This document shows, one piece after another, positions 5,332-41,602 of a DNA stretch of 64,000 bases; the stretch's first letter is position 1, and every line of letters starts with the position of its first letter. This stretch comes from an uncultured Pseudodesulfovibrio sp. (GTDB taxonomy: Bacteria; Desulfobacterota; Desulfovibrionia; Desulfovibrionales; Desulfovibrionaceae), in assembly GCF_963664965.1 (NCBI RefSeq), contig NZ_OY761823.1:10001-74000 (forward strand), given 5' to 3'. The notes beneath the pieces are model-generated. The model was not told the origin of the DNA. It did no database searches and was given only the letters and a program-made list of their open reading frames with translations. The position numbers and the translations under genes were made by a program.

Positions 5332-5403
5332 GCCTCCGGCGGCCTAAGAACCTTTCGTGAAAGGTTCTTAGGAATCTCCAAAGCTTTTTGTTGCGCTTCA
5401 CGA
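5332..5403 (+). repeat. Intergenic structured repeat family 1, copy 1 (3' of dnaE)
   Basis: Begins 13 bases after the dnaE stop with GCCTCCGGCGGC. A perfect 14-base-pair hairpin follows: arm CCTAAGAACCTTTC at 5343-5356 and its complement at 5359-5372. It then runs through AATCTCCAAAGCTTTTTG to TTGCGCTTCACG. Copies 2-4 are at 25515-25587, 40238-40310 and 41474-41602. It may terminate or protect the dnaE transcript. Confidence 0.85.
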
Positions 5404-5470
5404 GTAATGCTAACAATCGAAACGCCCTGCCTCACTTATAATTCATAGTAATAGATACGAGAGATACAAA

Positions 5471-5836
5471 ATGGATTCTTTGAAACAACTCGATGACCGG
5501 CACCGAAAATTCGTTGAAGACCGGCATTGGCAGAAACACCAGTCTCCCAAGAATCTTGCCATGGCGTTGACCGTGGAAGTGGGCGAACTGGTGGAGCATT
5601 TCATGTGGCTGACCCGCGATGAAAGCTGGAAAGTCGAAGGGAAGAAAAAAGAGGCCGTGGCCGAAGAACTGGCCGACTGTCTCATTTATCTCACCCGCCT
5701 TTCCGGGGAACTCGGTATTGATCTGGTTGCCGCGGCCCATGAAAAATGCGAGAAAAATGAGCGCAAGTACCCTGTGGAAGAATTTCAGGAAGGCGACCGC
5801 CGCCCCCACGAGTACAAGGACAAAGATAAATATTAA
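5471..5836 (+). CDS. MazG-like nucleotide pyrophosphohydrolase (dCTP pyrophosphatase type)
   Basis: 121 residues, a single all-alpha MazG-like domain. The metal-binding signature is visible as EVGELVEHFMW near residue 37 and EELADCLIYL near 66, the EXXE...EXXD pattern that holds magnesium in enzymes cleaving NTPs or dNTPs to NMP and pyrophosphate. The size fits the short dCTPase/RS21-C6 group rather than two-domain MazG. The tail is rich in charged residues. It is the first gene of a compact plus-strand run, with queD 17 bases downstream. The likely role is nucleotide-pool cleaning; the exact substrate is not determined by sequence. Confidence 0.85.
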   Translation: MDSLKQLDDRHRKFVEDRHWQKHQSPKNLAMALTVEVGELVEHFMWLTRDESWKVEGKKKEAVAEELADCLIYLTRLSGELGIDLVAAAHEKCEKNERKYPVEEFQEGDRRPHEYKDKDKY

Positions 5837-5853
5837 GGTTCGGAGAAATAACT

Positions 5854-6234
5854 ATGCCCGGTAAATGGCGCCTCACGATAACTCAGGATTTTTCAGCATC
5901 GCATCAACTGCGTAACTACGGCGGCAAATGCGAAAACATGCACGGCCACAACTTCGGCGTCGAAGTGGTGGTCGAAGGGACGAAGCTGGACGAAAGAGTC
6001 CAATATCTCGTCGACTTCAAGGACATCAAGCGCCGCACCAAGGATGTGCTGGAAAAGCTCGACCACAGGCATCTCAATGAAGTCGAGTGCTTTGTCGAGA
6101 TCAACCCATCTTCCGAGAACATCGCCATGTTCATATATAAGGAATTGAAGGACAACATGCCCGAGAACGTCACCCTTGCCGAAGTCTCTGTTTCGGAAAA
6201 GGAATCGTCCAAGGCGACCTACTGGGAAGAATAG
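5854..6234 (+). CDS. queD: 6-carboxytetrahydropterin synthase (QueD / PTPS family)
   Basis: 126 residues. The family converts 7,8-dihydroneopterin triphosphate to 6-carboxy-5,6,7,8-tetrahydropterin in the pathway to queuosine. Zinc ligands are visible as the His of SASHQL and the HGH of CENMHGHNFG. The Cys two residues before that motif (GKCENMHGH) is the one expected for QueD-type catalysis. LDHRHLNEV and a late Glu complete the site. It sits between the MazG-like gene and a small membrane-protein gene that starts 2 bases after its stop, so co-transcription is likely. No other queuosine genes are in view, so a related pterin activity remains possible. Confidence 0.9.
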   Translation: MPGKWRLTITQDFSASHQLRNYGGKCENMHGHNFGVEVVVEGTKLDERVQYLVDFKDIKRRTKDVLEKLDHRHLNEVECFVEINPSSENIAMFIYKELKDNMPENVTLAEVSVSEKESSKATYWEE

Positions 6235-6236
6235 AC

Positions 6237-6479
6237 ATGGCTGAAAAAAAGAAAGAGAAGCGGGGCGAAATCAACGGCATGTCCTACGGGAAGATCATGA
6301 CGAGCCTGCTCATCCCGAAGGATTCCCGTTCCAATCCCAAGCGCATCCTGAGCGGTATCGCTTTTCTCGCGTTCGTGGGATTCTTCCTCTTCGCCGCCCT
6401 GAGCCGAGGCTGCCACCGCGAGGCCATGCAGCAGCCCACGGAACCGACCAGCGCCATCATCGAAACCCGCCTCGGATAA
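6237..6479 (+). CDS. Small single-pass membrane protein, unknown function
   Basis: 80 residues. A strongly basic N-terminus (MAEKKKEKRG) is followed by a conserved-looking cytoplasmic stretch and one membrane helix at about 43-59 (ILSGIAFLAFVGFFLF), then a short polar tail. The start lies 2 bases after the queD stop and the stop lies 4 bases before dtd, so it is almost certainly translated as part of this operon. I do not recognise a family. Tight packing between two conserved genes argues that it is real. Confidence 0.65.
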   Translation: MAEKKKEKRGEINGMSYGKIMTSLLIPKDSRSNPKRILSGIAFLAFVGFFLFAALSRGCHREAMQQPTEPTSAIIETRLG

Positions 6480-6483
6480 TTTC

Positions 6484-6948
6484 ATGCGAATAGTCCTTCA
6501 ACGCGTCACCGACGCGAAAGTCACCGTGAACGACACCGTTGTCGGCGAGATCGGCACCGGCCTGCTCGCCCTTGTCGGATTCGGCAAAAGCGACACCGCC
6601 GATCTTGCAACCGCGCCCGTCTGGAAAAAGATGATCGACAAGGTACTCAATCTGCGTATCTTCACGGACGATGACGACAAGCTCAACAACTCGCTCTGTG
6701 ACATCTCCGGAGACATCCTGCTCGTCTCGCAGTTCACGCTGTATGCGGACTGCAAAAAAGGACGCCGCCCGTCATTTTCCGGTTCATGCCCGCCCGACAT
6801 AGCCGCCCCTCTGTTCGACAGGCTGGTGGCTGACGTGCGTTCCGCCGCGCCCGGTCAAGTCGCAACCGGCGAGTTCGGCGAGGAAATGTTTCTCGACTTC
6901 ACCAACTGGGGACCGGTAACCATCATCCTCGACTCCGACGAGATGTAG
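6484..6948 (+). CDS. dtd: D-aminoacyl-tRNA deacylase
   Basis: 154 residues, normal length for Dtd, which hydrolyses D-amino acids (and glycine from tRNA-Ala) from mischarged tRNAs. Family motifs are seen: the N-terminus MRIVLQRV, SQFTLYAD at about 79-86, which carries the substrate-pocket Ser-Gln, and the C-terminal NWGPVT, which holds the cross-subunit Gly-Pro motif. It starts 4 bases after the small membrane-protein gene and is followed directly by the diguanylate cyclase gene, one base separating stop and start. Confidence 0.96.
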   Translation: MRIVLQRVTDAKVTVNDTVVGEIGTGLLALVGFGKSDTADLATAPVWKKMIDKVLNLRIFTDDDDKLNNSLCDISGDILLVSQFTLYADCKKGRRPSFSGSCPPDIAAPLFDRLVADVRSAAPGQVATGEFGEEMFLDFTNWGPVTIILDSDEM

Positions 6949-6949
6949 C

Positions 6950-8374: not shown

Positions 8375-8416
8375 TTCCGCCAAGCGTATCCTGTCACGCG
8401 CTAATCCCAATAAAAT

Positions 8417-8456
8417 CAGGCCCCATGAAATACTCTAGAGTATTTCATGGGGCCTG
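8417..8456. terminator. 40-base perfect palindrome between convergent genes, probable two-way terminator
   Basis: Bases 8417-8436 and 8437-8456 are exact reverse complements centred on CTCTAGAG, with an A-rich flank on the left. It lies between the ends of the GGDEF gene and cmk, which converge. Confidence 0.75.
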
Positions 8457-10289: not shown

Positions 10290-10328
10290 TTTCCCTCTCC
10301 CCATGATATGATGCTGATCCAAAAGGCC

Positions 10329-12739: not shown

Positions 12740-12916
12740 AAAAGGCAAAAGACGAAAAAGCATAAATCCAGTCGCTTTCGCTCCTTCCATGCCCTCCCGG
12801 CGGGGTTCTTTCTTTTTCCAAAGCAGAAAAGAAAGAACGAAAGAAACTGCTTTTGTTCGTAACTTCACCGCCTAGTATCTTCGAAGCCAAGAATCTGATC
12901 AAACCGGGCCGCTCCC
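12735..12916 (-). repeat. Intergenic structured repeat family 2, short related copy (C), inverted
   Basis: On the minus strand it shares the two ends of the element at 13251-13510: a CGGCC...GATCAGATTCT start (12890-12916) and a GGAAGGAGCG...AGCGACTGGATT end (12768-12789). The middle is a long hairpin, GTTCTTTCTTTT pairing with AAAAAGAAAGAAC. It lacks the inner AGGA hairpins of copy A. Confidence 0.65.
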
Positions 12917-13050
12917 GAATCCAGTCGCCGGGGACGGCTCCGGATTCGAAGAGCCACGGCTTCCGTTTTGTCAGCTTCTAGGCTTCGAAGATGAGGGCTA
13001 GTGTTGGTCTTCGTGTGAACAAACATGAAAGGCAAGCAGGGAAACATTGA

Positions 13051-13146
13051 ATGACGAGACCTTGGTTCATTGCTGCACTTGCCCTCTTATCTCCCTTGCC
13101 ATCCGAAGTAACCCCGAATGAGCCAATTAAACCTCACAAGCCTTAG
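13051..13146 (+). CDS. Possible 31-residue ORF with a hydrophobic start, doubtful
   Basis: MTRPWFIAALALLSPLPSEV at the start could be a signal peptide; the remainder is short and Pro/Lys-rich. The upstream AGGG is weak and 9 bases away. It lies between two inverted family 2 repeats, so it may be a leftover rather than a gene. The gap 12740-13585 holds no other gene I can support. Confidence 0.18.
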   Translation: MTRPWFIAALALLSPLPSEVTPNEPIKPHKP

Positions 13147-13250
13147 AAGCTGACTGATCGGGGAAGGCGACTTTGGTTGTAGAATATGTATGAACCCACA
13201 TAATCCCGTACTGACCGGAATGGCAGGGACTACGCTTTTCATGGAGTGGA

Positions 13251-13510
13251 GCCGCCCCGATCAGATCAGATTCTCGGCGGTGAGGACTTGGCGGGTAAAT
13301 CAAGAAAAGGCCGCGTTTCTTTGGTACTTTCTTGGGGCGGCTCAGCCACAAATCCGCAGGACAGCGGATTTGGACGTGGCGGTCCTCCGCAACGCCTCGC
13401 AGGGGTGAGCCACAGGACGTGGCGAATCAAAAAGTACCGCCGTCCGCGCAGGACACGGAAGGAGCGTCAGCGACTGGATTTTGGCCTTTCGCTTTTCGCT
13501 TTTTGCTTTT
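13251..13510 (+). repeat. Intergenic structured repeat family 2, copy A
   Basis: An outer stem GGTACTTT (13323-13330) with AAAGTACC (13431-13438) encloses several hairpins. AAATCCGC and GCGGATTT (13350-13371) hold the loop AGGACA. GCGG and CCGC hold TCCT. GCCAC and GTGGC (13409-13423) hold AGGAC. The core 13347-13430 matches 25816-25896. Outside the core the ends match the inverted copy at 12735-12916. Confidence 0.75.
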
Positions 13511-25480: not shown

Positions 25481-25514
25481 CTGCTCGCCGCAGGGGCCGC
25501 CTCGCCGGCGGGGC

Positions 25515-25587
25515 GTCTCCGACGGCTCAAGAACCTTTCGGTGAAAGGTTCTTGAGAATCTCCAAAGCTTTTTGGTGCGCTTCGCGG
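25515..25587 (+). repeat. Intergenic structured repeat family 1, copy 2 (3' of rimO)
   Basis: GTCTCCGACGGC, then arm CTCAAGAACCTTTC at 25526-25539 and its exact complement at 25543-25556, then AATCTCCAAAGCTTTTTGG and TGCGCTTCGCGG. Compared with copy 1, the base of the stem changed on both arms, so pairing is kept. Confidence 0.85.
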
Positions 25588-25634
25588 ATTCGTGCGAACA
25601 CAAAAAATCGACCTTCATTTATAAAAAAACCATG

Positions 25635-25671
25635 AAAAAGGGCTGTATGCATTCTGCATACAGCCCTTTTT
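25635..25671 (+). terminator. Rho-independent terminator downstream of rimO
   Basis: AAAAAGGGCTGTATGCA (25635-25651) and its complement (25655-25671) form a 17-pair stem with loop TTC, ending in T5. It is symmetrical enough to work in both directions. Confidence 0.85.
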
Positions 25672-25815
25672 CAATTTGACTTTTCCGCACTCACTTCCAG
25701 GAAACAGCACATCTTATCTCCACCCCACCACCCCCGCGAAGCGTACCAAATAGTTACGGGGAGAGGGATGGGGGGATGGAGTCCAGAGGAAGGGGGGAAG
25801 GGAGTACCCCGCTTT

Positions 25816-25896
25816 CACAAATCCGCAGGACAGCGGATTTGGACGATGGGTTTCCCATCGCCCCGAAGGGGTGAGCCCCAGGACGGGGCGAATCAA
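25816..25896 (+). repeat. Intergenic structured repeat family 2, copy B
   Basis: Matches the core of copy A (13347-13430). AAATCCGC and GCGGATTT (25819-25840) hold loop AGGACA. GATGGG and CCCATC hold TTT. CCCC and GGGG hold GAA. GCCCC and GGGGC (25875-25889) hold AGGAC. A long imperfect outer stem starts near 25782 (CCAGAGGAAGGGGG) and closes near 25925. The gap 25481-26000 holds only repeats and terminators. Confidence 0.75.
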
Positions 25897-25941
25897 GGGG
25901 GGGCCCTCTTCCCCCTTTCCTCTGGCCGCCGGAGGCAAAAA

Positions 25942-25979
25942 AATCAGCCCCGGCCTGCGCTTGCAGGCCGGGGCTGATT
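25942..25979 (-). terminator. Terminator after leuS
   Basis: AATCAGCCCCGGCCTGC (25942-25958) pairs over 17 bases with 25963-25979 around the loop GCTT; on the minus strand it runs into TTTTTTT. It is 22 bases past the leuS stop. Confidence 0.9.
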
Positions 25980-26000
25980 ATTATTGGCTATGCTTCGCCG

Positions 26001-28502: not shown

Positions 28503-28591
28503 GGTCTCATCCTTGTGAAAGGCTGCCCCTCATCAGACCGGGAAACAGAGTCCCCGGTCCGAAAACGGACAGCCGTAAAATGTTCTTCTGG

Positions 28592-29038: not shown

Positions 29039-29043
29039 GAAAG

Positions 29044-29511
29044 TTACAGCTGCTCCAGGACGCGGATGGTCTCAAGCAGCGCGGAAGCGGCTTCAACACC
29101 CTTGTTGCCAGCCTTGGAACCGGCACGCTCAATGGCCTGATCCAGAGAATCACAAGTCAGCAGTCCGAAGCCCATGGGGACACCGGTTTCCATGCTGGTC
29201 TGAGCCACGCCCTTGGCGCACTCGTTGCAAACGTAATCGAAATGCGGGGTCGCGCCACGGATGACCGCGCCGAGAACCACGATGCCGTCATACTCGCCGG
29301 ACTTGGCGAGCTTCTGGGCGGCGATGGGCATTTCAAAAGCACCGGGCAGGCGCACCAGGGTCAGGTCTTCCTCACTGCCGCCGTGGCGGGTGAGATAATC
29401 GACAGCGCCGGAGATCAGGCGGTCAACGATGAAATCGTTGAAACGGGCAGCCACGATGGCCACCTTGAGGCCTTTGGCATTCAGCTGTCCTTCGATTGTT
29501 TTCAGGGCCAT
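29044..29511 (-). CDS. ribH: 6,7-dimethyl-8-ribityllumazine synthase
   Basis: 155 residues, standard length. It condenses 5-amino-6-ribitylaminouracil with dihydroxybutanone phosphate. Seen: [60 protein letters not shown] (with the catalytic His after RGATPH), [20 protein letters not shown]. It lies between ribBA, 97 bases upstream, and nusB. Confidence 0.97.
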
Positions 29512-29608
29512 GGGTGTTTCTCCCTTTTATATGTAAATATGCTGTGTACTATGTGACCAGATAGCCGAAAAAGTCAATATCACGGACTTTCCGGCCATCC
29601 GGCAGGCG

Positions 29609-30829
29609 CTATGCCTTGTCTTCATCGTCCATGTGGAGCATGTGCTCCATCTTGTCCCGCTTGGTTTTGAGGTACTTGAGGTTGAGTTCGCAAGCACCCA
29701 CCTCGATGGGAATGCGTTCAACCACTTCCAGACCATATCCTTCCAGACCGACCATCTTCTTGGGATTGTTGGTCATGAGTTTCATCTTGGAAACGCCGAG
29801 CGCCACCAGAATCTGTGCGCCGGTGCCGTACTCGCGAAGATCCGGCGGGAAACCGAGCTTCACGTTGGCCTCGACCGTATCATACCCCAGATCCTGAAGG
29901 TGATACGCCTTGATCTTGTTGCCCAGCCCGATACCGCGGCCTTCCTGTCGCATGTAGACGAGCACGCCCTTGCCTTCGTTGCGGATCATGCACATGGCAT
30001 CCTGCAACTGGGGGCCGCAGTCACAACGCAGGGAACCGAACACGTCGCCGGTCAGGCACTCGGAGTGCACGCGGACCAGAGTCGGGTCGTCGGGGTGAAT
30101 GTCACCCATGTACAGCGCGATATGGGTCTTGCCGTCGGCTTCAGAATGAAAAGCCGCGCTCTTGAACTCACCCCAGCGGGTCGGCAGATCGGCTTCGCCC
30201 ACCTTTTCGATGGAGTTGCCACCGAACTTCATGCGGTAGGCAATGAGGTCAGCCACGGAGCAGATCTTGAGATCGTGCTTTTCGGCATAGATTTCGAGGT
30301 CGGGCATGCGGGCCATGGTGCCGTCCTCGTTCATGATTTCGCAGATGACCGCAGCAGGCTTGAAGCCGGCAAGACGGGCGATGTCGGTGCCGCCCTCGGT
30401 CTGTCCGGCACGAACCAGAACGCCGCCGTCCTTGGCGCGCAGGGGGAAGATATGCCCCGGCGTGACAATGGACTCGGGCGAAGCGCCGTCGGCGACAGCA
30501 GCCAGCACCGTGGTGGCGCGGTCTGCGGCCGAGATACCGGTGGTTACGCCTTCACGCGCCTCAATGGAGAGAGTGAAATTGGTGCCGAACCCGGACTCGT
30601 TTTTCTTGGTCATGAGTTCAAGACCAAGATCATCGGCCATTTCATTGCTCATGGGCAGGCAGATCAGCCCGCGGCCATGGGTCGCCATGAAATTGATGAG
30701 TTCAGGGGTGACCGCTTCGGCGGCGCAGACGAGATCGCCTTCGTTCTCGCGGTCCTCGTCGTCCACCATGATGACCATTTTGCCTTGGCGGATATCCTCA
30801 ATGGCTTCTTCAATCGTGCACAGTGCCAT
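29609..30829 (-). CDS. ribBA: Bifunctional 3,4-dihydroxy-2-butanone-4-phosphate synthase / GTP cyclohydrolase II
   Basis: 406 residues. The N-terminal half is RibB ([59 protein letters not shown]). The C-terminal half is RibA ([23 protein letters not shown], with the zinc Cys triplet; [44 protein letters not shown]). It makes the two precursors of riboflavin. ribD and ribE are not in front of it and must be elsewhere. I see no FMN-riboswitch consensus in the 237-base upstream gap (30830-31066). Confidence 0.97.
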
Positions 30830-31066
30830 GTTCGCATTACCTCGTTGTTCTTTAGCCCCGAAAAAGCCGCGCAGGACAAAGCCTGCCCCAGACCATGGGG
30901 AACCAAATTTCTTATCGCAAAAGCTGTCGGTGGGAAAGGAGAAAATTTTCGCATAAAACGGCTGAAAAATCAGTCAAATACGACAAAACAGCCCCAAGAC
31001 CATCACAGCGCTCGTTTTTCATCCGGAAGAAAATAGTCACTCAAGAGCCGAAAGCAAGGGAGAAAA

Positions 31067-31732
31067 TCAGATCAGGGAGAATTGTTTCTCCCCGCTTCCC
31101 TCATGAACTCTGACGCGATTGCGTCCGGCTTCCTTGGCAGCAGTCAGCGCCCGTCCGGCAGCACGGATCATGTCATCCCGGGGGTTGCCGTCACGATCCC
31201 ACACGGACTTAAAGTCCGCGATGCCGACGCTGATGGTCACATTGATCTTCGGCCCTTCAAGCGTCATGTCGTTGACCTCCACCACCACCCGCAGTTTTTC
31301 CGCGGCCTGACGCGCCTCATCCGCACCGGTCGACGGCAGCAGAACGACAAACTCCTCACCACCGTACCGCGCCACGGTGTCCGATGTCCGCACGTTGGCC
31401 GACAGCAGGCGGGCCACCTCTTTCAGCACCCTGTCGCCCGAACGGTGCCCATAGGTATCGTTGACCCGGCTGAAGTGGTCTATGTCCACAACCAGCAGAG
31501 ACAATTCACTGCCGTATCGGCTCGCGCGGTCGATCTCACCGTCAAAGCTTTCAAAGAACTGCCGTCGTCCGGGGAGTCCGGTCAATTCATCCGCAGCCGT
31601 CAACTGGGATATCAGCTTGTGCGCGGTATCAAGCTGACGCCGGAGGCGCGTTATCAGAATCAGGGAGATGCCGAGCAGAACCGCGGAAACGAATACGGCC
31701 AACCCGATGATAATGGTATGGTCAATTGTCAT
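31067..31732 (-). CDS. Membrane-anchored GGDEF diguanylate cyclase
   Basis: 221 residues from the ATG at 31732 (AGGAG 4 bases upstream). One N-terminal membrane helix (HTIIIGLAVFVSAVLLGISLILI), a short coiled linker, then a GGDEF domain: DELTGLPGRRQFFESF, VVDIDHFSRVNDTYGHRSGD, catalytic GGEEF, with RTSD placed as an RxxD inhibitory site. It should be active. There is no sensor domain, so activity may depend on dimerisation or expression. It is the second GGDEF gene in the window. Confidence 0.92.
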   Translation of the reverse strand: MTIDHTIIIGLAVFVSAVLLGISLILITRLRRQLDTAHKLISQLTAADELTGLPGRRQFFESFDGEIDRASRYGSELSLLVVDIDHFSRVNDTYGHRSGDRVLKEVARLLSANVRTSDTVARYGGEEFVVLLPSTGADEARQAAEKLRVVVEVNDMTLEGPKINVTISVGIADFKSVWDRDGNPRDDMIRAAGRALTAAKEAGRNRVRVHEGSGEKQFSLI

Positions 31733-31860
31733 GCTGCTCCTGTCCGTCTTGATACAGATTTTCAACCGGCAACCGAAGGCAACGGGGTGTCATCACGAAG
31801 AATGCAGAAAACACGGGCACTATGAAATTATATATTACATCAACATCCAATGACGCAAAA

Positions 31861-31893
31861 TGCCGGTTCAAGGCGCAACACCCCGAACCGGCA
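31861..31893 (-). terminator. Terminator after the family 2 glycosyltransferase gene
   Basis: On the minus strand TGCCGGTTC and GAACCGGCA (31861-31869 and 31885-31893 on the plus strand) pair over nine bases, followed by TTTTG. Confidence 0.65.
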
Positions 31894-31915
31894 GAAAGTG
31901 ATCTTGAAAAAGGAG

Positions 31916-32653
31916 CTACAGCCTGACTGCGTCAATTCCACCCGGAACCGGTCTGCCAAGGTCGGCCACCTTCACGGAACGTTCATTGGCCAGACGGTCC
32001 AGAAGATTCATCTGACGTCGGGACAACGCGCTGTTATCCAGACTGCGCCCTGCATCATAGACGCCCACGACCTCTTCAGTCACCGTGACGCTGTGCGTCC
32101 TGCGGTACCAGTCAAAGATATTGAGATAGTCGGCTTCGTACCTGCCGCAGTGTCTCCACCCGCCGCAACGGTCCACCACCAGACGGCGGGACACGCACAG
32201 GCACAGCGGGTCTATGTTTCCGGGCCTCACAAGCGAACCGGAATCGGATACCGGCAGAAACGGCTTGTCAAAGGCCAACTGCGTATCAATACGCCCGATG
32301 ACCATTTCCGCATCGAAATGCTTGAGATAATTCCGAAGGGTGTACGGCTTGATGACATTGTCGTCGTCAAGGAAAATCAGTTTCTCACCGCTTGCGATCT
32401 TGAGCAGCGTATTGCGAATGCCGTTCCCCCAGTCGTTGTCACTGGGCAGATTGAAACAGCGCACCGGATACGCGCACTCGGGACATTTCCCCTTGACGCC
32501 GTCGAAGCCGATGAGAATTTCCAGCTGTCCCGTTTCCAGTCCGGCAAACCGGGCCGCCTGCTCGACAGATCGAACCGCCATTTGCAAGGCCTTGGGCCTG
32601 TTGCCGGTGGAGGGGGTGATTACCGAGAAAAGTATATCGCCGTCCATGGCCAT
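31916..32653 (-). CDS. Glycosyltransferase family 2-like protein
   Basis: 245 residues, GT-A fold. FSVITPSTGNRPKALQMAVRSVEQA is the nucleotide-sugar-binding start; LIFLDDDNVIKPYTLRNYLKHF holds the DxD metal motif; a Cys-rich central part (CPECAYPVRC; DPLCLCVSRRLVVDRCGGWRHCGRYEADY) replaces the usual ED box, and DYLNIFDWYRR follows. It is soluble with no membrane helix. It is likely to modify a surface glycan or protein; donor and acceptor are not evident. Single gene with its own terminator; a hairpin with nine-pair arms lies upstream at 32721-32747. Confidence 0.85.
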   Translation of the reverse strand: MAMDGDILFSVITPSTGNRPKALQMAVRSVEQAARFAGLETGQLEILIGFDGVKGKCPECAYPVRCFNLPSDNDWGNGIRNTLLKIASGEKLIFLDDDNVIKPYTLRNYLKHFDAEMVIGRIDTQLAFDKPFLPVSDSGSLVRPGNIDPLCLCVSRRLVVDRCGGWRHCGRYEADYLNIFDWYRRTHSVTVTEEVVGVYDAGRSLDNSALSRRQMNLLDRLANERSVKVADLGRPVPGGIDAVRL

Positions 32654-32916
32654 ATCCCGAATCTCCCTCCCCGCATTCCTGCGGGATTTGAAGGGTCTCC
32701 CAACCCTGAATTTCCATCTCGACGAGCTGTCAATATTTCAGCTCGTCATGAATGCTATCGGCGGCATTTACTGTTTGCTTTAGGGAAAACGAGAAAAAAC
32801 TCATGGGAATTATGACAGCCTCCCCCAAAGTTCCGACAACCTCAGTCTGCCGGTAGACCTTTGCGGGGTTTCCACGTATCCTTTTCCGCCAGAATCACCC
32901 CGACCCGGAGAACTGG

Positions 32917-33411
32917 ATGAAATATTTTCGATATATACTGCTGACACTTCCCCTGCTGCTCGCGGCCTGCGGCTATGGTTTCGGGGAACAGGGCCAATCC
33001 GTCCTTTCCGAACAGGACCGCACTCTCGCCATCGCCGAAGTGAAAAACCCGACCACCATCTCATGGCTGGAGCCTCGCATCAGAAGGATACTGCGGGACG
33101 AGCTCACCCGCCGGGGAATCGTCAAATGGGTGGACAGCCGCTCACAGGCAGACGCACTCATCACCATCAACATCGAAAAATTCTACCGCCCGACCACCGT
33201 GTCCGGCGAAAAGGACCAGACCCTGCAATCATCGGCCAACTTCGTCTTTTCCGCGGAAATAAAATCCGCGACCGATGGCTCCGTACTCTGGAATTCCGGT
33301 TCCATCAGCCAGAGCTGGCCGTTTTTCTCCGGACAGGAAGCCGAAGCCGACAAGGAAGTCACCCTGCTCGGCATCCGCCGACTCGCCGACAGAATGTCAC
33401 AGAACTACTAG
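32917..33411 (+). CDS. lptE: LPS-assembly lipoprotein LptE
   Basis: 164 residues. Type II signal with lipobox LLAACGYGF; the mature protein has the LptE pattern (ISWLEPRIRRILRDELTRRG, DALITINIEKFYRP, DGSVLWNSGS). LptE plugs LptD in the outer membrane during LPS insertion, which indicates an outer-membrane organism. It is followed 15 bases later by holA; lptE-holA adjacency is also known in enterobacteria (after leuS), which supports the call. Confidence 0.85.
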   Translation: MKYFRYILLTLPLLLAACGYGFGEQGQSVLSEQDRTLAIAEVKNPTTISWLEPRIRRILRDELTRRGIVKWVDSRSQADALITINIEKFYRPTTVSGEKDQTLQSSANFVFSAEIKSATDGSVLWNSGSISQSWPFFSGQEAEADKEVTLLGIRRLADRMSQNY

Positions 33412-33426
33412 GCAGGCCCGTACCCC

Positions 33427-34419
33427 ATGAACCGTCCGAAATATCTTTTCCTCGTCTGCCCCGACCCGCAGCTCATCAAATCTCACATTGACGAACGGCT
33501 TGGCGCATCCGGCCAGCAGGAGTGGGAAACAAAAACCTTCTGGGGCGATGACGACGACCCGTTACCGGCAACATTCTGGACAGACCTGACTATAAAGAGC
33601 CTGTTCCCGCAGCCCAAGGCGCTCATTGTCCGCCGCGCCCATGCGCTCAAGGCCGAGCAGTGGGACAAGCTCGATGCCGGGGTTAAAGGGCTGTCCAACG
33701 AGATATTCCCGATCTTCTGCCTTGAAGGCCAATGGAAGACCAAAAAAGCGCCGGTCCCGGCCACGCTGGCCCGCCGCAACCTGTTCAAAAAGGCGAAAAA
33801 GGAAAACTGGATATGGGAGTCTCCGGGGCTTGACCAGAACACCCTCGGCGCGTTTGTCCGCGACTGGGCCGCACAAAACGGCATCACGTTCGAACGGGGG
33901 GCCGATCGCGCCCTTATCATGGCCCTGCCCACGGATGCCGTGGCCGCACGCCTTGAACTCGGCAAGATGGAACTGGCCGCAGGCGACGCAAAAACCGTCA
34001 CCCGCGATCATGTGGACCTGATCCCCAACACCGGCGAGATGGCCTTTTTCGACCTCATGGACGCCCTTGGGAAACCGGGTGCCGAAGCCGCTGTCTGGAA
34101 ACGGGTCATCGACGACCACTCCAAGAGTTCCAAGGATCAGATGCTGTTCAACCTCATCGGTTTCCTCGCCAGTCAGGCCCGCATGTACGGCCAGATCGTG
34201 AGTGGGGAAAAGGTTAAGGGCAACCCCTATGTCATCAAGCGGAAAACCCCTATTGCCAAACGCCTCGGCAGGCAGGGTGTCGCCCGCATGATCGACCTCG
34301 CGCTGGACGCGGAATTCTCCATCAAGACCGGCGCGCGCAAATATGAAGAAGTCATGGACATCCTCATCGCCGGACTCATTGACCTGTTCCAACCGAAGCA
34401 GCAGGCCCGCCGCTATTGA
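33427..34419 (+). CDS. holA: DNA polymerase III delta subunit
   Basis: 330 residues, about the usual HolA length. The N-terminal part (YLFLVCPDPQLIKSHID, TFWTDLTIKSLFPQPKALIVRRAHAL) matches the delta AAA-like domain without a proper P-loop, as expected. The mid region (ERGADRALIMALPTDAVAARLELGKMEL) and the C-terminal helical collar (DQMLFNLIGFLASQARMYGQIVSG) fit clamp-loader delta, which opens the sliding clamp. With dnaE and the DEDDh exonuclease it makes three replication-linked genes in the window. Confidence 0.88.
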   Translation: MNRPKYLFLVCPDPQLIKSHIDERLGASGQQEWETKTFWGDDDDPLPATFWTDLTIKSLFPQPKALIVRRAHALKAEQWDKLDAGVKGLSNEIFPIFCLEGQWKTKKAPVPATLARRNLFKKAKKENWIWESPGLDQNTLGAFVRDWAAQNGITFERGADRALIMALPTDAVAARLELGKMELAAGDAKTVTRDHVDLIPNTGEMAFFDLMDALGKPGAEAAVWKRVIDDHSKSSKDQMLFNLIGFLASQARMYGQIVSGEKVKGNPYVIKRKTPIAKRLGRQGVARMIDLALDAEFSIKTGARKYEEVMDILIAGLIDLFQPKQQARRY

Positions 34420-34472
34420 TTTTCACGTTATAAACTCGCTCAAATAATACCCAAAAACTTGACTCCCCCGAT

Positions 34473-35156
34473 ATGAAGGAAACCAGGAAGCCCCATTATC
34501 TCGGCCACCGCCAGCGCCTCAAGGAGAAGCTGGCTCGGGACAGCCGCAGCCTTGCCGACTACGAAATACTCGAACTCGCGCTGGCTCTGGTGATCCCCCG
34601 CCGGGATACGAAACCGCTCGCCAAGGAACTCATTGAGCGGTTCGGTTCATTGAAAGACGCGATAATGGCACGTCCGGACCGGCTTTCCGACGTCAAGGGC
34701 ATCGGCCCGTCGGTTCTTGCCCAGTGGACGCTCATGCAGGAAGTCTTTGCACGCGTGGGCGAAGCGTCCACCCGCAGCAAGACCCCCCTGTCCGATCCGA
34801 CGGAAGTCGCAAAGGCAGCGATGGCACGTATCGGCAACAAGGGAACGGAAGAGTTCTGGGTGGCGTTTCTGGACACGAAGAACAGGGTCATCGCATGGGA
34901 ACAGGTCAGCAAGGGGACGGTTGACGCCACCCCGGTTTTCCCCCGCGAAATCATGGCCGCCGCCCTTCGGCTCGAGGCCGCGAGCATCATCCTCGCCCAC
35001 AACCACCCCGGAGGCGACCCGTCCCCGTCCATGGAGGACATCATGCTCACTGACCGCATCCGGGAAACCGCCACAGGTCTCGACATCCGGGTGCTGGACC
35101 ACATCGTCGTCACGGACCACGACTATTACAGCTTCAACGACCACGGACGGCTCTAA
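34473..35156 (+). CDS. radC: RadC/JAB-domain protein
   Basis: 227 residues, full-length RadC. An N-terminal helix-hairpin-helix (RFGSLKDAIMARPDRLSDVKGIGPSVLAQ) precedes a JAMM metalloprotease-like core: EFWVAFLDTKNRVI, then HNHPGGDPSPSMEDIMLTDRI, giving the HxH(10)D metal motif. The old DNA-repair label is not well supported for the family and the function is uncertain. Encoded 53 bases after holA and 31 bases before acyP. Confidence 0.93.
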   Translation: MKETRKPHYLGHRQRLKEKLARDSRSLADYEILELALALVIPRRDTKPLAKELIERFGSLKDAIMARPDRLSDVKGIGPSVLAQWTLMQEVFARVGEASTRSKTPLSDPTEVAKAAMARIGNKGTEEFWVAFLDTKNRVIAWEQVSKGTVDATPVFPREIMAAALRLEAASIILAHNHPGGDPSPSMEDIMLTDRIRETATGLDIRVLDHIVVTDHDYYSFNDHGRL

Positions 35157-35187
35157 CACTAGAAACCAACTCACGGAGGCCCGCCAC

Positions 35188-35460
35188 ATGAAGGAAATGC
35201 ATTGCATCGTTCACGGCAAGGTTCAGGGCGTCTGGTATCGTGCATGGGCTGCGGAAACAGCCCGCGAAATGGGTCTCGCGGGATGGGTTCGCAACCGCAC
35301 CGACGGTTGTGTCGAAATCACGGCACAGGGAAGCACCGTCCAGTTGGAAGAGTACCGCGCATGCCTGTATGACGGACCGCCCCTCGCCCGAGTGAGCGAC
35401 GTCACAACGGACTTCACGGACCCGGACGAGATTTTCGAGGGGTTCAAAGCCCGTTATTAA
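35188..35460 (+). CDS. acyP: Acylphosphatase
   Basis: 90 residues, hydrolyses acyl phosphates. The catalytic Arg is in GKVQGVWYRAWAAETA and the Asn in GWVRNRTDGCVEI, with both motifs at the normal spacing. The ATG at 35188 has GGAGG upstream. A longer in-frame reading exists but starts inside radC and is not real. Confidence 0.94.
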   Translation: MKEMHCIVHGKVQGVWYRAWAAETAREMGLAGWVRNRTDGCVEITAQGSTVQLEEYRACLYDGPPLARVSDVTTDFTDPDEIFEGFKARY

Positions 35461-35557
35461 AACCCGTTTTTTACATAAAATAATAGCTTGCCAAGCCGAA
35501 ATGACGACTTATTAGGGGTAGCAGACGTCATTTTCACATAAATCAAAGGATGACACC

Positions 35558-38080
<2,523 letters not shown>

Positions 38081-38100
38081 AGGGTACCAATACAAAATGA

Positions 38101-38135
38101 AAGTCCCCCGCCGAGATTCTCGGCGGGGGACTTTT
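38101..38135. terminator. Two-way terminator between lon and the WcbI-like gene
   Basis: AAAGTCCCCCGCCGAGA (38101-38117) and its complement (38119-38135) meet almost without a loop; A and T runs flank it. The two neighbouring genes converge here. Confidence 0.9.
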
Positions 38136-38158
38136 CATATTCCGTACTGTTCCCGAAA

Positions 38159-38989
38159 TTAGATCGCTATCTGGTCACCCTGAAGAAAGCCGATGAAATC
38201 CGTTATGCCCTGCTGTTTGGCAATGACGTAATTGGCGATGTACCGGGCGAAATTCAGCTTCCTTCCATACACCTCATACAAGGTATCAGGACCGGCAAAA
38301 TCCCAGCCGTTGGCCTGCGCCACTTTCGGATTGATCGGCTGCTCGAATTCCGGGAAAGGATCGCCCATCGCCTCCAATACCGCTTCATCAGCCGGTTGCA
38401 GACCGAGTTGTTCCAACACGCCCCGCGCTGCGATGTTCATGAGCGTTGAGCCGGGGTGGTTCACGGTATTGAACAGCCGCTGCTTGCCGTAATTTGCAAC
38501 AATGAAATCAACGTATTTGACCGGGGTGTGTTTCTCCCGTTCACGCTCCTGCCGGATGGAAGCCTCCATACGGTCAGACAACCCCCGCTTCGTGACATCG
38601 GAACGGAGGAACAACAATATGGTTTCTTCCGGCGGCAACCCGAGAGCTATAGTCTCGTCAAGATGGGTACACCGATAGTCGAACCCCTGTTCACCGCTCC
38701 AGAACGGCCAGTATCCCTTGAAAAACATGTTCGGCAGACACAGTGACCGGGCACTGTCCGGCAGTTTCCGCAGCAGGCTCTCCGATGCGAACTCGCCCCA
38801 GTCCGGATTAAGGTACTGATACAGAAACAGCGAACACTGCTCCATCAACTCATCCGGGATCGGTTCCCTGACATAATTGGTGAACAGCCGACAGTCGTAC
38901 CTCGCCGCGAACTCCGGGCTGGCAGACAGCCTCTCAAGAAGCGGCTCGCCCTGACAGTTCGCCTGCACAATGCAGATTTCCTTTTCCAT
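38159..38989 (-). CDS. WcbI-family polysaccharide biosynthesis protein, putative acyltransferase
   Basis: 276 residues from the ATG at 38989; the frame to 39043 adds an unlikely tail. The opening CIVQANCQGEPLLERLSASPEF matches the WcbI signature, where Cys, Asn and Gln line a CoA-binding site. Later motifs: SLCLPNMFFKGYWPFW, ALGLPPEETILLFLRSD, LFNTVNHPGSTLMNIAARGVLEQLG. WcbI proteins are tied to capsule polysaccharide in Burkholderia and are thought to transfer an acetyl group. There are no capsule genes next to it here, so the target glycan is unknown. Single gene with a shared terminator. Confidence 0.8.
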   Translation of the reverse strand: MEKEICIVQANCQGEPLLERLSASPEFAARYDCRLFTNYVREPIPDELMEQCSLFLYQYLNPDWGEFASESLLRKLPDSARSLCLPNMFFKGYWPFWSGEQGFDYRCTHLDETIALGLPPEETILLFLRSDVTKRGLSDRMEASIRQEREREKHTPVKYVDFIVANYGKQRLFNTVNHPGSTLMNIAARGVLEQLGLQPADEAVLEAMGDPFPEFEQPINPKVAQANGWDFAGPDTLYEVYGRKLNFARYIANYVIAKQQGITDFIGFLQGDQIAI

Positions 38990-39151
38990 CCCGACCCCAA
39001 ACCATTTGAAATTACGGCACAAGCGCCTTGGACGAAATACCATGGAAACCCCATGGATTCAACTTTGGCACAGGCCCGCAGTTTACACCCAAATACCAAG
39101 CGTGTATCTCTGCCGGACACACCACAAACCAAACAAGCAACGAGGATATAC

Positions 39152-40219
39152 ATGCAGAATCAGTTCGACGCCGCTGTCGCGGCCATTACCCCTGTTGACC
39201 GCTCTCTGGCCGCAACCGCACAGGCCCATCTCGACAACCTGACCAAGCCGCAGGGCAGCCTCGGCCGCCTTGAGGAACTCGCGCTCCAGATGTATCTCAT
39301 TCAGGAAGGCGCACCGGCTGCCGATCCCATGCGTATTTACACCGTAGCGGGCGATCACGGCGTCAACGACGAAGGCGTATCCATCTTCCCGCAGGAAGTC
39401 ACCCGCCAGATGATTCTCAACTTCCTCAACAACGGCGCAGGTATCAACGTACTCGCCAAGACCGCAGGCGCACAGCTTTACGTGGTGGACGCAGGTTCCT
39501 GCGGTGGTGGATACGACGAGCATCCCAACCTGATTCAAGAAAAGATCGCCCCCGGAACCGCCAACCTCGCCAAAGGCCCTGCCATGACCCGCGAGCAATG
39601 CCTCAAGGCCCTGCTCCTCGGCATCTCCCTTGCCGACCGCGCCCACGACGACGGCGTCAAGGTACTCGGCACAGGCGACATGGGCATTTCCAACACCACC
39701 CCGTCCACCGCGCTTTACAGCGCCTATCTCGGCCTTGCCCCCGAAGCCATCACCGGCCCCGGCACAGGACTCGACAAGGGCGGCGTCGTCAACAAGGCTG
39801 ACGTCATCCGCAAAGGCCTCGCCGCCAACAAGGATGCCGTGGAATCCGGCGATCCCGTCGAAATCCTCGCAGCACTCGGCGGCCTTGAAATCGCCACCCT
39901 CGCAGGTCTCATCCTCGGCGGTGCCAAAAACCGCCAACTCGTCAGCGTGGACGGCTTCATCTCAACCGCCGCATACACCGCCGCATCCAGAATCTGCCCC
40001 GCGGTCAAGGACTACTGCATCATCAGCCACGCCTCCGCCGAACCCGGACACGCCGCCGCAGTCCACTCCCTCGGCATGAAACCCTATCTCGACCTCGGTT
40101 TCCGGCTCGGCGAAGGCACTGGCGCGGCCTGCGCCATGTACCTCGTCCGAAGCGCAGCCGACATGTACAACAACATGGCCACCTTCGCCGACGCAGGCGT
40201 AGACGAAGCCACGAGCTAG
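39152..40219 (+). CDS. cobT: Nicotinate-nucleotide:dimethylbenzimidazole phosphoribosyltransferase
   Basis: 355 residues from the ATG at 39152 (CGAGGA upstream). It makes alpha-ribazole phosphate for the lower ligand of cobalamin. Motifs: LDNLTKPQGSLGRLEELA, VAGDHGVNDEGVSIFPQEVT, GTGDMGISNTTPSTALYSA, GGLEIATLAGLILGGA, LGMKPYLDLGFRLGEGTGAACA, with the catalytic Glu in the last motif. It is about 23 kb from the cbiET-cbiF cluster, so B12 genes are split. Followed after 18 bases by a family 1 repeat. Confidence 0.97.
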   Translation: MQNQFDAAVAAITPVDRSLAATAQAHLDNLTKPQGSLGRLEELALQMYLIQEGAPAADPMRIYTVAGDHGVNDEGVSIFPQEVTRQMILNFLNNGAGINVLAKTAGAQLYVVDAGSCGGGYDEHPNLIQEKIAPGTANLAKGPAMTREQCLKALLLGISLADRAHDDGVKVLGTGDMGISNTTPSTALYSAYLGLAPEAITGPGTGLDKGGVVNKADVIRKGLAANKDAVESGDPVEILAALGGLEIATLAGLILGGAKNRQLVSVDGFISTAAYTAASRICPAVKDYCIISHASAEPGHAAAVHSLGMKPYLDLGFRLGEGTGAACAMYLVRSAADMYNNMATFADAGVDEATS

Positions 40220-40237
40220 GGGGGAAGGAAGAAGAAT

Positions 40238-40310
40238 GCCTCCGGCGGCTCAAGAACCCTTCGTGAAGGGTTCTTGAGAATCTCCTAAGCTTTTTGGTGC
40301 GCCTTCGGCG
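40238..40310 (+). repeat. Intergenic structured repeat family 1, copy 3 (3' of cobT)
   Basis: GCCTCCGGCGGC, arm CTCAAGAACCCTTC (40249-40262) and complement (40265-40278), AATCTCCTAAGCTTTTTGG, ending TGCGCCTTCGGCG. Relative to copy 2, one inner pair changed from T-A to C-G on both arms. Confidence 0.85.
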
Positions 40311-40379
40311 GGTATGTGCGGACGCGGAAAGGCGTGCCATGAATCATGGGAAAGGCACTTATAAGGTATTCAAGAGATC

Positions 40380-40410
40380 GTGGGTTCAACCCCCTCTAGC
40401 TCAACCACCA
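40380..40410 (+). other. tRNA- or tmRNA-like 3' end fragment, candidate integration site scar
   Basis: GTGGG (40380-40384), loop TTCAACC, CCCTC (40392-40396) make a T-arm with one mismatch, then TAGCTCA, a discriminator A and CCACCA. Bacterial tmRNA ends similarly (GGGTTCAA...AGCTC...CCACCA). No matching 5' acceptor strand occurs within the preceding bases, so it is not a complete tRNA. AT-rich sequence starts right after it. Confidence 0.5.
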
Positions 40411-40474
40411 AATTTCTCTAAAAAAAAGGAGGTTAGGCAAAAAGTCCGACCGCTATTTTATTTGTGGTAAACCA

Positions 40475-40618
40475 ATGAGGGAAAAAATGAGAAGGGGGGA
40501 AATTGACTGGACTGGGAAAAAGTGTGTGATAGTATTGGGGCATGTGCTCGATTATAGCAGGCGCTTGATTCACTCGGAGTTTCCGGGAATTCGCAAGAAG
40601 TTGATTAAAGCTCTATAG
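40475..40618 (+). CDS. Short hypothetical ORF in the AT-rich remnant
   Basis: 47 residues from an ATG at 40475: basic start (MREKMRRGEIDWTGKK), then VIVLGHVLDYSRRL and IRKKLIKAL. No convincing ribosome site is directly before it. It may be a fragment of a lost gene; I do not recognise it. Confidence 0.25.
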   Translation: MREKMRRGEIDWTGKKCVIVLGHVLDYSRRLIHSEFPGIRKKLIKAL

Positions 40619-40678
40619 ATGACGGACTCGACTTTTGAGTATATATTCGGGAAGTGAGGGTAGCTAAATATGTACTAA

Positions 40679-40816
40679 AGAGCATCGTTACGATACCACG
40701 CTGGGTATTCAATCCAACCGAATTGGGATGAAATCCTTGAAAGGGAACCTCTTATTGCATTTTCATTCTACCTTAATGATAAGGTTGTATTTGTTGAGTT
40801 ATCTACTGCTGAATGA
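40679..40816 (+). pseudogene. C-terminal fragment of an unknown gene in the AT-rich remnant
   Basis: An open stretch of 45 codons without its own start, protein-like in composition (GYSIQPNWDEILERE, LIAFSFYLNDKVVFVELSTAE), ending in TGA that overlaps the ATG of the next ORF as ATGA. That overlap suggests two genes once translated in series. Confidence 0.4.
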
Positions 40817-41242
40817 AATTGTTGAAGGTTAGGTTGAGGAAAATTTTCGCAGTCATTTTATTCATGGTTCTTGCAAGGTTGGGATTTGCATCTAGTCTTA
40901 CTTGGTTCTGGATTTTAGGTGCTTATGAAATAATACGAACAATGACTCAGTCTAAAGATTGCTTCTCATTAAAAGTGCGCAACAATCTGGATAAGCTAAA
41001 AAAAGAATTAGCCGTAATAAGAATGCCAGCCGCTAAAATGGAAAAGCAAGGCAAAAGAATTCCTGTTGTTAGCACCAGATGTTAGCCCTGATGGATGGGA
41101 TATTGAAAACAAGGATTTATTGGTGAATGACCCTGATGATAAGATTGTGTCGGCACGCTATCTGTTTGATAGCTTCTGTGCAGTTCTTGCTGACATCAAA
41201 AGAACAGACATCTTGAAGAAACATACTGAAACTTATGAATAA
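40813..41242 (+). pseudogene. Frameshifted gene for a ~143-residue unknown protein
   Basis: Frame 1 reads 90 codons: a hydrophobic start (IFAVILFMVLARLGFASSL), then WFWILGAYEIIRTMTQ and LKKELAVIRMPAAKMEKQGK. Near 41065-41085 a one-base shift is needed to continue into LLLAPDVSPDGWDIENKD and LFDSFCAVLADIKRTDIL, ending at TAA 41240-41242. The GAYE..RT and RMPxAKxE pattern recalls small uncharacterised proteins from accessory regions, but I cannot name a family. GC is low (33% in 40801-40860 by hand count). Confidence 0.55.
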
Positions 41243-41372
41243 ATTCAATGTTGTAAGTATAGAATCTTGGTCAACAATCTGGTGAGCCTTTGACTCTAAC
41301 ACCTATCCAATATCCCCGATTTTCTGTTGCCCCTCCCCCCGCCTCTGCCTTTTCTCTCCTAAAAAAACACCC

Positions 41373-41451
41373 CGTTTCGGGCCGGGGGAAATGGCTGTCC
41401 TTGTCCCGGCAAATCGCACAAACGTCCACCCATTTCCCCCGGCCCGAAACG
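41373..41451. repeat. 22-base perfect inverted repeat
   Basis: The arm starting CGTTTCGGGCCGGGGG at 41373-41394 is the exact reverse complement of 41430-41451; 35 bases lie between. There is no T-run beside the right arm. It lies between the AT-rich remnant and repeat copy 4. Confidence 0.7.
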
Positions 41452-41473
41452 TTAACGGCGCAGCAGCGCAGCT

Positions 41474-41602
41474 CGCCGAAGGCGCACCGGGATTCCAAAG
41501 GCCCTCGGCCTTTGGCGAGTCCAGAGCAGCGCTCTGGTCCCCCTGAAAGGGGCCACACGGCAACAGCCCGCGCAGCGGACCGCCGGTAGGCCCGCCGGAG
41601 GC
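41474..41602 (-). repeat. Intergenic structured repeat family 1, longer variant (copy 4, 3' of secA)
   Basis: On the minus strand it starts GCCTCCGGCGGGC and ends GGTGCGCCTTCGGCG, the same borders as copy 3. Inside are different hairpins: CCCCTTTCAGGGG, CCAGAGC with GCTCTGG, and CCAAAGGCC with GGCCTTTGG. It lies 93 bases past the secA stop, beyond the terminator. Confidence 0.65.

What the first reader, a model, noticed from the sequence alone, without database searches (positions are those of the whole stretch)
5332..41602. A structured repeat placed downstream of four genes in gene orientation, with compensatory changes
Copies at 5332-5403, 25515-25587, 40238-40310 and 41474-41602 lie 13, 34, 18 and 93 bases after the stops of dnaE, rimO, cobT and secA. 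Each is on the same strand as its gene. Copies 1-3 have a 14-pair hairpin whose bases differ (CCTAAG / CTCAAG at the base, CCTTTC / CCCTTC near the tip), yet every change is matched on the other arm. A shared 3' half (AATCTCC, AAGCTTTTTG, TGCGC) follows. Copy 4 keeps both borders but has other hairpins inside, so the element is modular. Covariation is direct evidence that the RNA fold is selected or that copies spread as a folding unit. A role in mRNA 3'-end formation or stability is inference.
Basis: partly seen in the sequence, partly recalled or inferred. Interest (0 to 1): 0.72.

Follow-up and report, generated by a model that had tools for sequence, protein, structure and literature searches.

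The report
Dispersed hairpin repeat with triple-helix code
The repeat is one end of a short mobile-type DNA element scattered between genes of Desulfovibrio-like bacteria, and its hairpins carry a third matching strand, as a DNA triple helix would need, so it looks less like an RNA signal made for the neighbouring genes.

Summary
Copies 1-3 have the coordinates, distances and matched stem changes described; copy 4 is a composite; a fifth, long-hairpin copy beside leuS (border 25925-25936, -) was missed. The border GCCTCCGGCGGC occurs 88 times in this genome, up to 388 times in other genera of the family, and is near background in other families. Copies form inward-facing pairs (37 within 750 bp); eight elements of 455-473 bp align border to border. 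Single units are present or absent at some orthologous sites of relatives. This is a REPIN/BIME/MITE-like element, without a linked RAYT transposase.

"Downstream in gene orientation" is not the rule. Between tandem genes orientation is 21 same : 25 opposite; the border mostly faces the nearest gene, and before start codons it often supplies GGAGG. Stems are near-perfect palindromes (596/626 Watson-Crick pairs) without G-U excess, so covariation does not show RNA selection.

New: the 5' arm is polypurine, and the segment after the hairpin is its parallel complement (long arms 18/19; newly fetched units 12/13), the code of an intrastrand triple helix. Such potential triplexes are known (E. coli BoxC); this variable family lets third-strand covariation be tested.

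The parts
5332..5343 (+). Border GCCTCCGGCGGC of copy 1, 13 nt after the dnaE stop
5343..5372 (+). Hairpin of copy 1 (13 pairs, loop CGTG)
5373..5403 (+). Third segment AATCTCCAAAGC, T-run and TGCGC motif of copy 1
25515..25526 (+). Border of copy 2, allele GTCTCCGACGGC, 34 nt after the rimO stop
25526..25556 (+). Hairpin of copy 2 (14 pairs, loop GGT)
25557..25587 (+). Third segment, T-run and TGCGC motif of copy 2
25633..25673 (.). Bidirectional terminator-like hairpin between copies 2 and 5
25783..25925 (-).
25925..25936 (-). Border GCCTCCGGCGGC of copy 5, 64 nt after the leuS stop; with copy 2 the ends of one 422-bp inverted-border element
25758..25782 (-). Third segment of copy 5 (ACTCCATCCCCCCATCCCTCTCCCC), running parallel to the purine arm
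   Evidence: rule
40238..40249 (+). Border of copy 3, 18 nt after the cobT stop
40249..40278 (+). Hairpin of copy 3 (13 pairs, loop CGTG)
40279..40310 (+). Third segment AATCTCCTAAGC, T-run and CGCCTTCGGCG hairpin of copy 3
41373..41451 (.). Long inverted repeat CGTTTCGGGCCGGGGGAAATGG; by eye a similar module lies inside the elements at genome 204875, 1722718 and 3296003
41474..41602 (-). Copy 4: composite chain of hairpins behind the border GCCTCCGGCGGG (41591-41602), 93 nt after the secA stop

Best explanation
The repeat is one unit of a non-autonomous, mobile-type intergenic element of Desulfovibrionaceae-like bacteria. A unit is a constant 12-nt border, a hairpin of variable sequence (polypurine 5' arm, complementary 3' arm), and a third segment that is the parallel complement of the 5' arm. 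Most units face inward in pairs as terminal inverted repeats of a 165-540 bp element; single units also occur. I think it spreads as folded single-stranded DNA (hairpin or intrastrand triplex) recognised by a protein not identified here, and that insertions survive mainly between genes: past stop codons, around existing terminators, or where the border's GGAGG can serve as a ribosome-binding site. Shown: dispersal, paired borders, border-to-border homology, presence/absence at some orthologous sites, palindromy, the purine-arm rule, and third-segment covariation in long arms. Inferred: the ssDNA intermediate, actual triplex formation, direction of the presence/absence changes (gain or loss), and that the fold serves the element rather than the host's mRNA.
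For: 88 exact borders, 0 for the reversed control; up to 191+197 per genome in family f1. 37 inward-facing pairs among 121 borders within one mismatch in the fetched stretches; eight elements of 455-473 bp align in all 28 pairings over at least 466 columns (30-nt flanks included) at 68-85% identity. In two collinear relatives, 8 of 50 listed gaps were aligned: three show a unit in G012 only, one shows loss of hairpin and border in G001; one of these units lies between a stop and a terminator hairpin kept in both. Border nearer the 5'-side gene: 54 of 54 paired and 25 of 28 unpaired own copies (53 of 54 and 21 of 28 when 75 nt is allowed for the unit's own length), 35 of 39 and 32 of 36 elsewhere. 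Orientation to transcription in tandem regions 21:25, 9:9, 5:5. GGAGG 5-10 nt before a start codon in 12 of 27 start-side copies. 5' arm polypurine in 54 of 59 distinct arms, polypyrimidine in 0; newly fetched arms 19 of 24 and 0. Parallel third segment better than antiparallel in 18 of 19 long arms, 269/326 matches against 243.7 +- 4.8 with arm letters shuffled; newly fetched arms 12 of 13, 160/220 against 132.3 +- 4.6. Scan without border knowledge: 11 and 22 such hairpins per 400 kb against 0-3 in shuffles.
Against: No transposase identified: only Y1_Tnp was searched, and it is absent from the own genome. No clear target-site duplication at the aligned polymorphic sites. The short-arm copies that dominate the window follow the third-strand code only weakly; for several the antiparallel score is equal or better (over 74 arms parallel 50, antiparallel 14, ties 10; over 43 asymmetric arms 31, 9 and 3). 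In long arms the antiparallel alignment is also fair (248/352), since the arms are of low complexity. C in the 5' arm faces C more often than G (86 against 22 of 115). Two new arms of another sequence (TCTGCACTC..., one of them in G212) are not purine, and the third segment kept with them does not match. Of 33 triplex-code hairpins in 800 kb only 12 start right at a border, and in the window the scan finds none in a unit. Own copies almost avoid divergent regions (2 of 84), which a role in transcripts would also predict.
Confidence: 0.6

Rival explanations
1. A 3'-UTR RNA element: the hairpin is selected in the mRNA to stop 3'-5' exonucleases or to set the 3' end.
For: Convergent regions are favoured: 9 of 39 and 11 of 45 hold a border, against 11 of 91 and 9 of 102 tandem regions. 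56 of 84 intergenic copies lie 3-127 nt after a stop on their 5' side. One unit lies between a stop and a conserved terminator. REPs elsewhere have a similar placement and are thought to be transcribed (PMC3733652, passages read).
Against: Orientation is unbiased between tandem genes (21:25, 9:9, 5:5). No G-U excess on the unit strand (6 G-U, 13 A-C). 27 of 84 copies have their border towards a start codon.
Confidence: 0.18
2. A transcription terminator: intrinsic, or Rho-dependent through the C-rich, G-poor segment after the hairpin.
For: A T-run follows the third segment in the short AAGAACC-type copies; the third segment is 41% C and 14% G over its first 14 nt in 159 units.
Against: The terminator scan of 25000-42000 flags neither the hairpin of copy 2 nor that of copy 3, while separate terminator-like hairpins lie beside units (copy 1 lies outside the scanned stretch). 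The T-run starts about 12 nt after the stem, so there is no immediate U-tract.
Confidence: 0.1
3. Neutral debris: palindromes kept perfect by template switching or hairpin repair, without function or present mobility.
For: Near-perfect palindromes with A-C and G-U mismatches both rare; no linked transposase found among those searched.
Against: Template switching makes antiparallel complements, not the parallel third segment (inference); the constant 12-nt border, the purine-arm rule (54 of 59 against 0) and border-limited elements need more.
Confidence: 0.12

Closest known systems
REPINs / BIMEs (inverted REP doublets, e.g. Pseudomonas fluorescens, E. coli)
   Same: Inverted doublets of a short conserved sequence around a spacer that folds; compensatory changes in the hairpin; intergenic; high copy number (PMC3116915: abstract and section 10 part 1 read). 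BIME mosaic arrangement known from the abstract of PMC2817692 in a search listing.
   Different: Border GCCTCCGGCGGC is not the GTAG or CGTC tag; border pairs span 165-540 bp rather than 71 or 110 bp; Y1/RAYT genes do not follow copy number.
Prokaryotic MITEs (Correia, ERIC, Chunjie)
   Same: Terminal inverted repeats, 35 of 37 border pairs at most 500 bp, intergenic, size variants (PMC10969869, passages read).
   Different: No target-site duplication seen and no parent transposase found; each end carries its own variable hairpin and third segment.
Potential intrastrand triplex elements; E. coli BoxC / TMECO (Hoyne et al. 2000, known here only through PMC4666352; Holder et al. 2015 = PMC4666352)
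   Same: Purine and pyrimidine blocks folding twice on one strand to give a third strand with triplex code; intergenic; no strand bias; some inverted pairs.
   Different: The TMECO pattern is absent (0 of 5 genomes). Block order here is Pu-loop-Py-linker-Py on the unit strand, against Py-loop-Pu-linker-Pu. The part between the purine block and its partner often exceeds the 1-6 nt loop limit of the published search. Sequences are diverse and covary, whereas the 23 TMECO copies of E. coli MG1655 show an 'extraordinary degree of identity'.
BOX elements of Streptococcus (recalled, from no call)
   Same: Modular intergenic repeats able to form stem-loops.
   Different: Sequence, host and border; not compared by computation.

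Membership tests
REP/REPIN mobilised by RAYT | High-copy intergenic palindromic unit, often inverted doublets | tested here: met
   84 of 88 exact copies intergenic; 37 inward-facing pairs
REP/REPIN mobilised by RAYT | Linked RAYT (Y1_Tnp, PF01797) in the genome | tested here: not met
   0 in the own genome. Of 34 other genomes 17 have Y1_Tnp: 11 of the 24 chosen for high copy number (not G090, G180, G099, G286, G178, G124, G164 and six more) and 6 of the 10 chosen for low copy number
REP/REPIN mobilised by RAYT | GTAG or CGTC tag at one end of the palindrome | tested here: not met
   The constant border is GCCTCCGGCGGC/GTCTCCGACGGC; tag definition from PMC3733652
MITE | Terminal inverted repeats bounding a short gene-less element | tested here: met
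   12-bp inverted borders; eight 455-473 bp elements alike border to border; absence of a gene judged by size only
MITE | Target-site duplication | tested here: inconclusive
   No clear duplication at the aligned polymorphic sites, but the relatives are only about 90% identical
MITE | Parent transposase with the same ends | not tested
   Only Y1_Tnp was searched
Potential intrastrand triplex element | Purine arm, complementary arm and a third segment in triplex code and orientation | tested here: met
   clear for long arms, weak for short arms such as copies 1-3
Potential intrastrand triplex element | Triplex actually forms | not testable with these tools
   Needs CD, NMR or chemical footprinting
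E. coli BoxC / TMECO | Pattern CCCTCNCCC-N3-6-GGGNGAGGG-N3-GGGNGAGGG | tested here: not met
   0 matches in 5 genomes, no mismatch allowed
Intrinsic terminator | Hairpin followed directly by a U-tract | tested here: not met
   Hairpins of copies 2 and 3 are not among the 29 sites; copy 1 was not scanned but has no immediate U-tract
Known Rfam RNA family | Match at the gathering score | tested here: not met
   0 in the window; 75 matches at E <= 0.5 in four loci, all below gathering, all but four to microRNA models

The most novel reading that the evidence does not exclude
Triple-strand folding is itself under selection in a bacterial mobile repeat. The family keeps a constant border while the hairpin sequence is replaced again and again, and the third segment follows the purine arm in parallel. 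Read on the complementary strand, in alignments that were scored for complementarity, G faces the G-C pairs of the purine arm in 358 of 362 cases and A or T the A-T pairs in 203 of 210, the purine-motif code, which per PMC4666352 cannot form in RNA. The element would then be recognised as a folded DNA triplex, a recognition mode I know of in no transposition system (recall).
Probability: 0.3. Interest if true: 0.85.

Novelty: new variant of a known kind. Interest (0 to 1): 0.62.

Why it matters
Whether potential intrastrand triplexes in bacterial genomes matter in the cell has stayed open; the BoxC/TMECO copies of E. coli are nearly identical (PMC4666352), which leaves little covariation to test. 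Here is a family with up to hundreds of copies per genome in several genera, in which arm and third segment vary together, so triplex selection can be tested by covariation and in vitro. It also shows that hairpin covariation beside genes need not mean an RNA function: orientation statistics and the G-U against A-C count are needed. Units that place GGAGG before start codons suggest a way in which such insertions become tolerated.

Tried and rejected
Rejected: a rule of gene orientation; the RAYT link; BoxC/TMECO membership; Rfam families; plasmid or phage carriage of one representative 486-bp stretch (0 matches). CsrA-like AGGA loops in the ~75-nt hairpin insert were considered and dropped, because the insert occurs in both orientations. 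Integron attC was considered from memory and not tested. My early notes call the gene at 26001-28502 lon; that was wrong, Pfam gives leuS.

Weak points: gene calls come from my own codon-score script and start codons are uncertain. In the two 400-kb regions 33 of 72 and 39 of 75 borders within one mismatch fall in or overlap genes and are probably mostly chance; some intergenic ones may be chance too. A unit takes up room on its 3' side, which by itself favours 'border nearer the 5'-side gene' in short regions. The rimO comparison used 30 of the 36 genus genomes, and the script lost the true stop in at least four (L179, L191, L194, L197): a border within one mismatch was found within 700 nt in the own genome, G026 and (at +499) G001; G018 has a pair without such a border. 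The base-to-base table comes from alignments scored for complementarity, so its A, G and T rows are biased towards the rule. The arm-shuffle controls keep letter composition, not dinucleotides. Of 76 distinct arms, 2 that were clearly not units were dropped. One search saw 124 borders, 66 with a simple hairpin, 26 new distinct arms; 4 of the 26 (2 of the 13 long ones) are from G180, already in the first sample, and G118, among the eight genomes, is of G180's genus. Low copy numbers occur inside family f1 too, so the element is not in every member.

Paper searches: 10 of 10 used, one further call turned back. No paper holding GCCTCCGGCGGC or GCCGCCGGAGGC concerned these bacteria (judged by titles and abstract starts). 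Searches on Desulfovibrio or Pseudodesulfovibrio with REP, repeat, MITE, Term-seq or tiling terms gave nothing on this family in the listings. PMC2267715 was only searched for three words, none found. All this covers open-licence PMC papers only.
Full report
What is in the window. Copies 1-3 stand as described, with the stated distances and paired differences. Copy 4 is a chain of hairpins behind a border with one mismatch. A fifth copy lies on the minus strand from 25936 down to about 25735, 64 nt past leuS (Pfam), with 28-nt arms and an 87-nt loop insert. Copies 2 and 5 are the two ends of one 422-bp inverted-border element around a terminator-like hairpin.

Scale. The exact border occurs 46+/42- times in the 3.87-Mb genome, the reversed control 0. 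In 297 genomes drawn from the class, high counts are found only in family f1 (191+197 in G090, 146+171 in G180), though several f1 genera are low too; in families f2-f6 a strand has at most 7, with controls up to 4. A MAG named Pseudodesulfovibrio encodes the closest RimO in the named collection, 79% identical, so I take the host as that genus; this is inference, and that listing may leave out the nearest genomes.

Anatomy. Stretches around all 88 exact copies were fetched and analysed by script (the printed list was cut in the middle). With borders up to one mismatch there are 121 in the stretches; 37 form inward-facing pairs within 750 bp, 165-540 bp long. Eight elements of 455-473 bp align in all 28 pairings from border to border, 30-nt flanks included, at 68-85% identity. 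Several other pairs, of about 172-180 bp, surround terminator-like hairpins that differ from copy to copy. The units are mosaic: hairpin loops can hold a ~75-nt insert, in either orientation.

Covariation. 75 clean units give 36 distinct stems: 596 of 626 pairs are Watson-Crick, 6 G-U, 13 A-C, 11 other; the third pair of the stem occurs as TA, AT, CG and GC. Dealing 3' arms among units of equal stem length lowers the paired fraction from 0.968 to a mean of 0.832, at most 0.877 in 500. So the palindrome is kept, but nothing favours the unit strand as RNA: A-C is not rarer than G-U.

Context. Of 88 copies 4 lie in called genes and 84 between them: 34 convergent, 21 tandem in gene orientation, 25 tandem opposite, 2 divergent, 2 undetermined. 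The border is nearer the gene on its 5' side in 54 of 54 paired and 25 of 28 unpaired copies, or 53 and 21 when 75 nt is allowed for the unit's own length. In contiguous 400-kb regions of G001 and G012, borders (units, and some by chance) lie in 9 of 39 and 11 of 45 convergent, 11 of 91 and 9 of 102 tandem, and 6 of 55 and 5 of 60 divergent regions, with tandem orientation 9:9 and 5:5. Where the border faces a start codon, the opposite strand reads GCCGCCGGAGGC; in 12 of 27 cases a start codon, called or in frame with the called one, lies 5-10 nt after GGAGG.

Mobility. G001 and G012 are collinear at about 90% identity. Of 50 listed gaps I aligned eight: three show a single unit present in G012 only, one shows loss of hairpin and border in G001, and the other four are unclear or unrelated. 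In one case the unit sits between a stop and a terminator hairpin present in both genomes. Gain and loss cannot be told apart here. No RAYT gene is in the own genome; Y1_Tnp is in 11 of 24 high-copy and 6 of 10 low-copy genomes chosen for the test.

Third segment. Comparing genera showed the same border followed by unrelated hairpins, and that the bases after the hairpin are the parallel complement of the 5' arm, for example TGGGGAAGGGGAAACTTTTG followed by ACCCCATCCCCTTCAAAAC. Over 76 distinct arms the mean local score is 7.32 parallel and 6.16 antiparallel; with shuffled or swapped arms the parallel score is 4.5-4.9. Over 74 arms parallel wins 50, antiparallel 14, ties 10; over 43 asymmetric arms 31, 9 and 3; the own third segment is in the best 5% of all third segments for 31 of 74 arms, for 13 when scored antiparallel. 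In 19 long arms parallel wins 18, with 269/326 matches against 243.7 +- 4.8 (largest of 200: 255) when arm letters are shuffled; the best antiparallel alignments give 248/352. The prediction was then tested on newly fetched units: 12 of 13 long arms, 160/220 against 132.3 +- 4.6 (largest 145); at minimum arm length 10 it is 12 of 16, 180/253 against 153.1 +- 5.0. The 5' arm is polypurine (at least 5 of 6 at positions 3-8) in 54 of 59 and 19 of 24 distinct arms of 8 nt or more, never polypyrimidine. A scan that ignores the border finds 11 and 22 such hairpins per 400 kb against 0-3 in shuffles, 4 and 8 of them right at a border; in the window it finds one, outside the units.

Reading of the code. 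A polypurine arm, a complementary arm and a parallel pyrimidine segment are what a pyrimidine-motif intrastrand triplex needs on the unit strand; the complementary strand has the purine motif. That A in the arm sometimes faces A rather than T (22 against 181; by eye mostly at AA steps) fits the purine motif, which allows T as well as A at A-T pairs (PMC4666352: abstract, passages and sections 10, 14, 15, 16 and 18 read). C in the arm faces C in 86 of 115, which the simple code does not explain. Short-arm copies, like copies 1-3, show it weakly. Triplex formation is inferred, not shown.

Known relatives. Placement between convergent and tandem genes and inverted doublets match REPs and REPINs (PMC3733652 passages; PMC3116915 abstract and section 10 part 1). 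Potential intrastrand triplex elements are known in E. coli (BoxC/TMECO), but that pattern is absent from five of these genomes. The main text of that paper holds no word beginning with desulf.

Verdict. A real, modular, dispersed DNA element; the RNA reading is possible but not favoured; the third-segment covariation is the part worth following.

Noticed in passing
40372-40402: Sequence like the 3' end of a tRNA gene (GTGGGTTCAACCCCCTCTAGCTCAACCACCA) without a whole tRNA (ARAGORN finds none in the window), followed by about 900 nt that look AT-rich up to 41340: possibly an att remnant of a decayed integrated element lying between copies 3 and 4.
   Followed up: no
12756-13489: A second kind of inverted-repeat element (CCATGCCCTCCCGGCGGGGTTCTTTC..., 40-nt arms 83% complementary); similar sequence stands after rimO in G001, G012 and G032.
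   Followed up: partly
13347-13431 and 25816-25890: A ~75-nt multi-hairpin module (CAAATCCGCAGGACAGCGGATTTGGACG..., AGGA loops, stems that differ with matched changes) is shared by two different repeat kinds; it also sits in hairpin loops elsewhere in the genome, in both orientations.
   Followed up: partly
25942-25979: Strong terminator-like hairpin of leuS whose T-run runs straight into the border of copy 5, so this unit lies after, not before, the terminator.
   Followed up: no
G002:C16:12411-12503 and G069:C1:893385-893618: Tandem arrays of the exact border at constant spacing (27 nt and 111 nt), perhaps local amplification.
   Followed up: no
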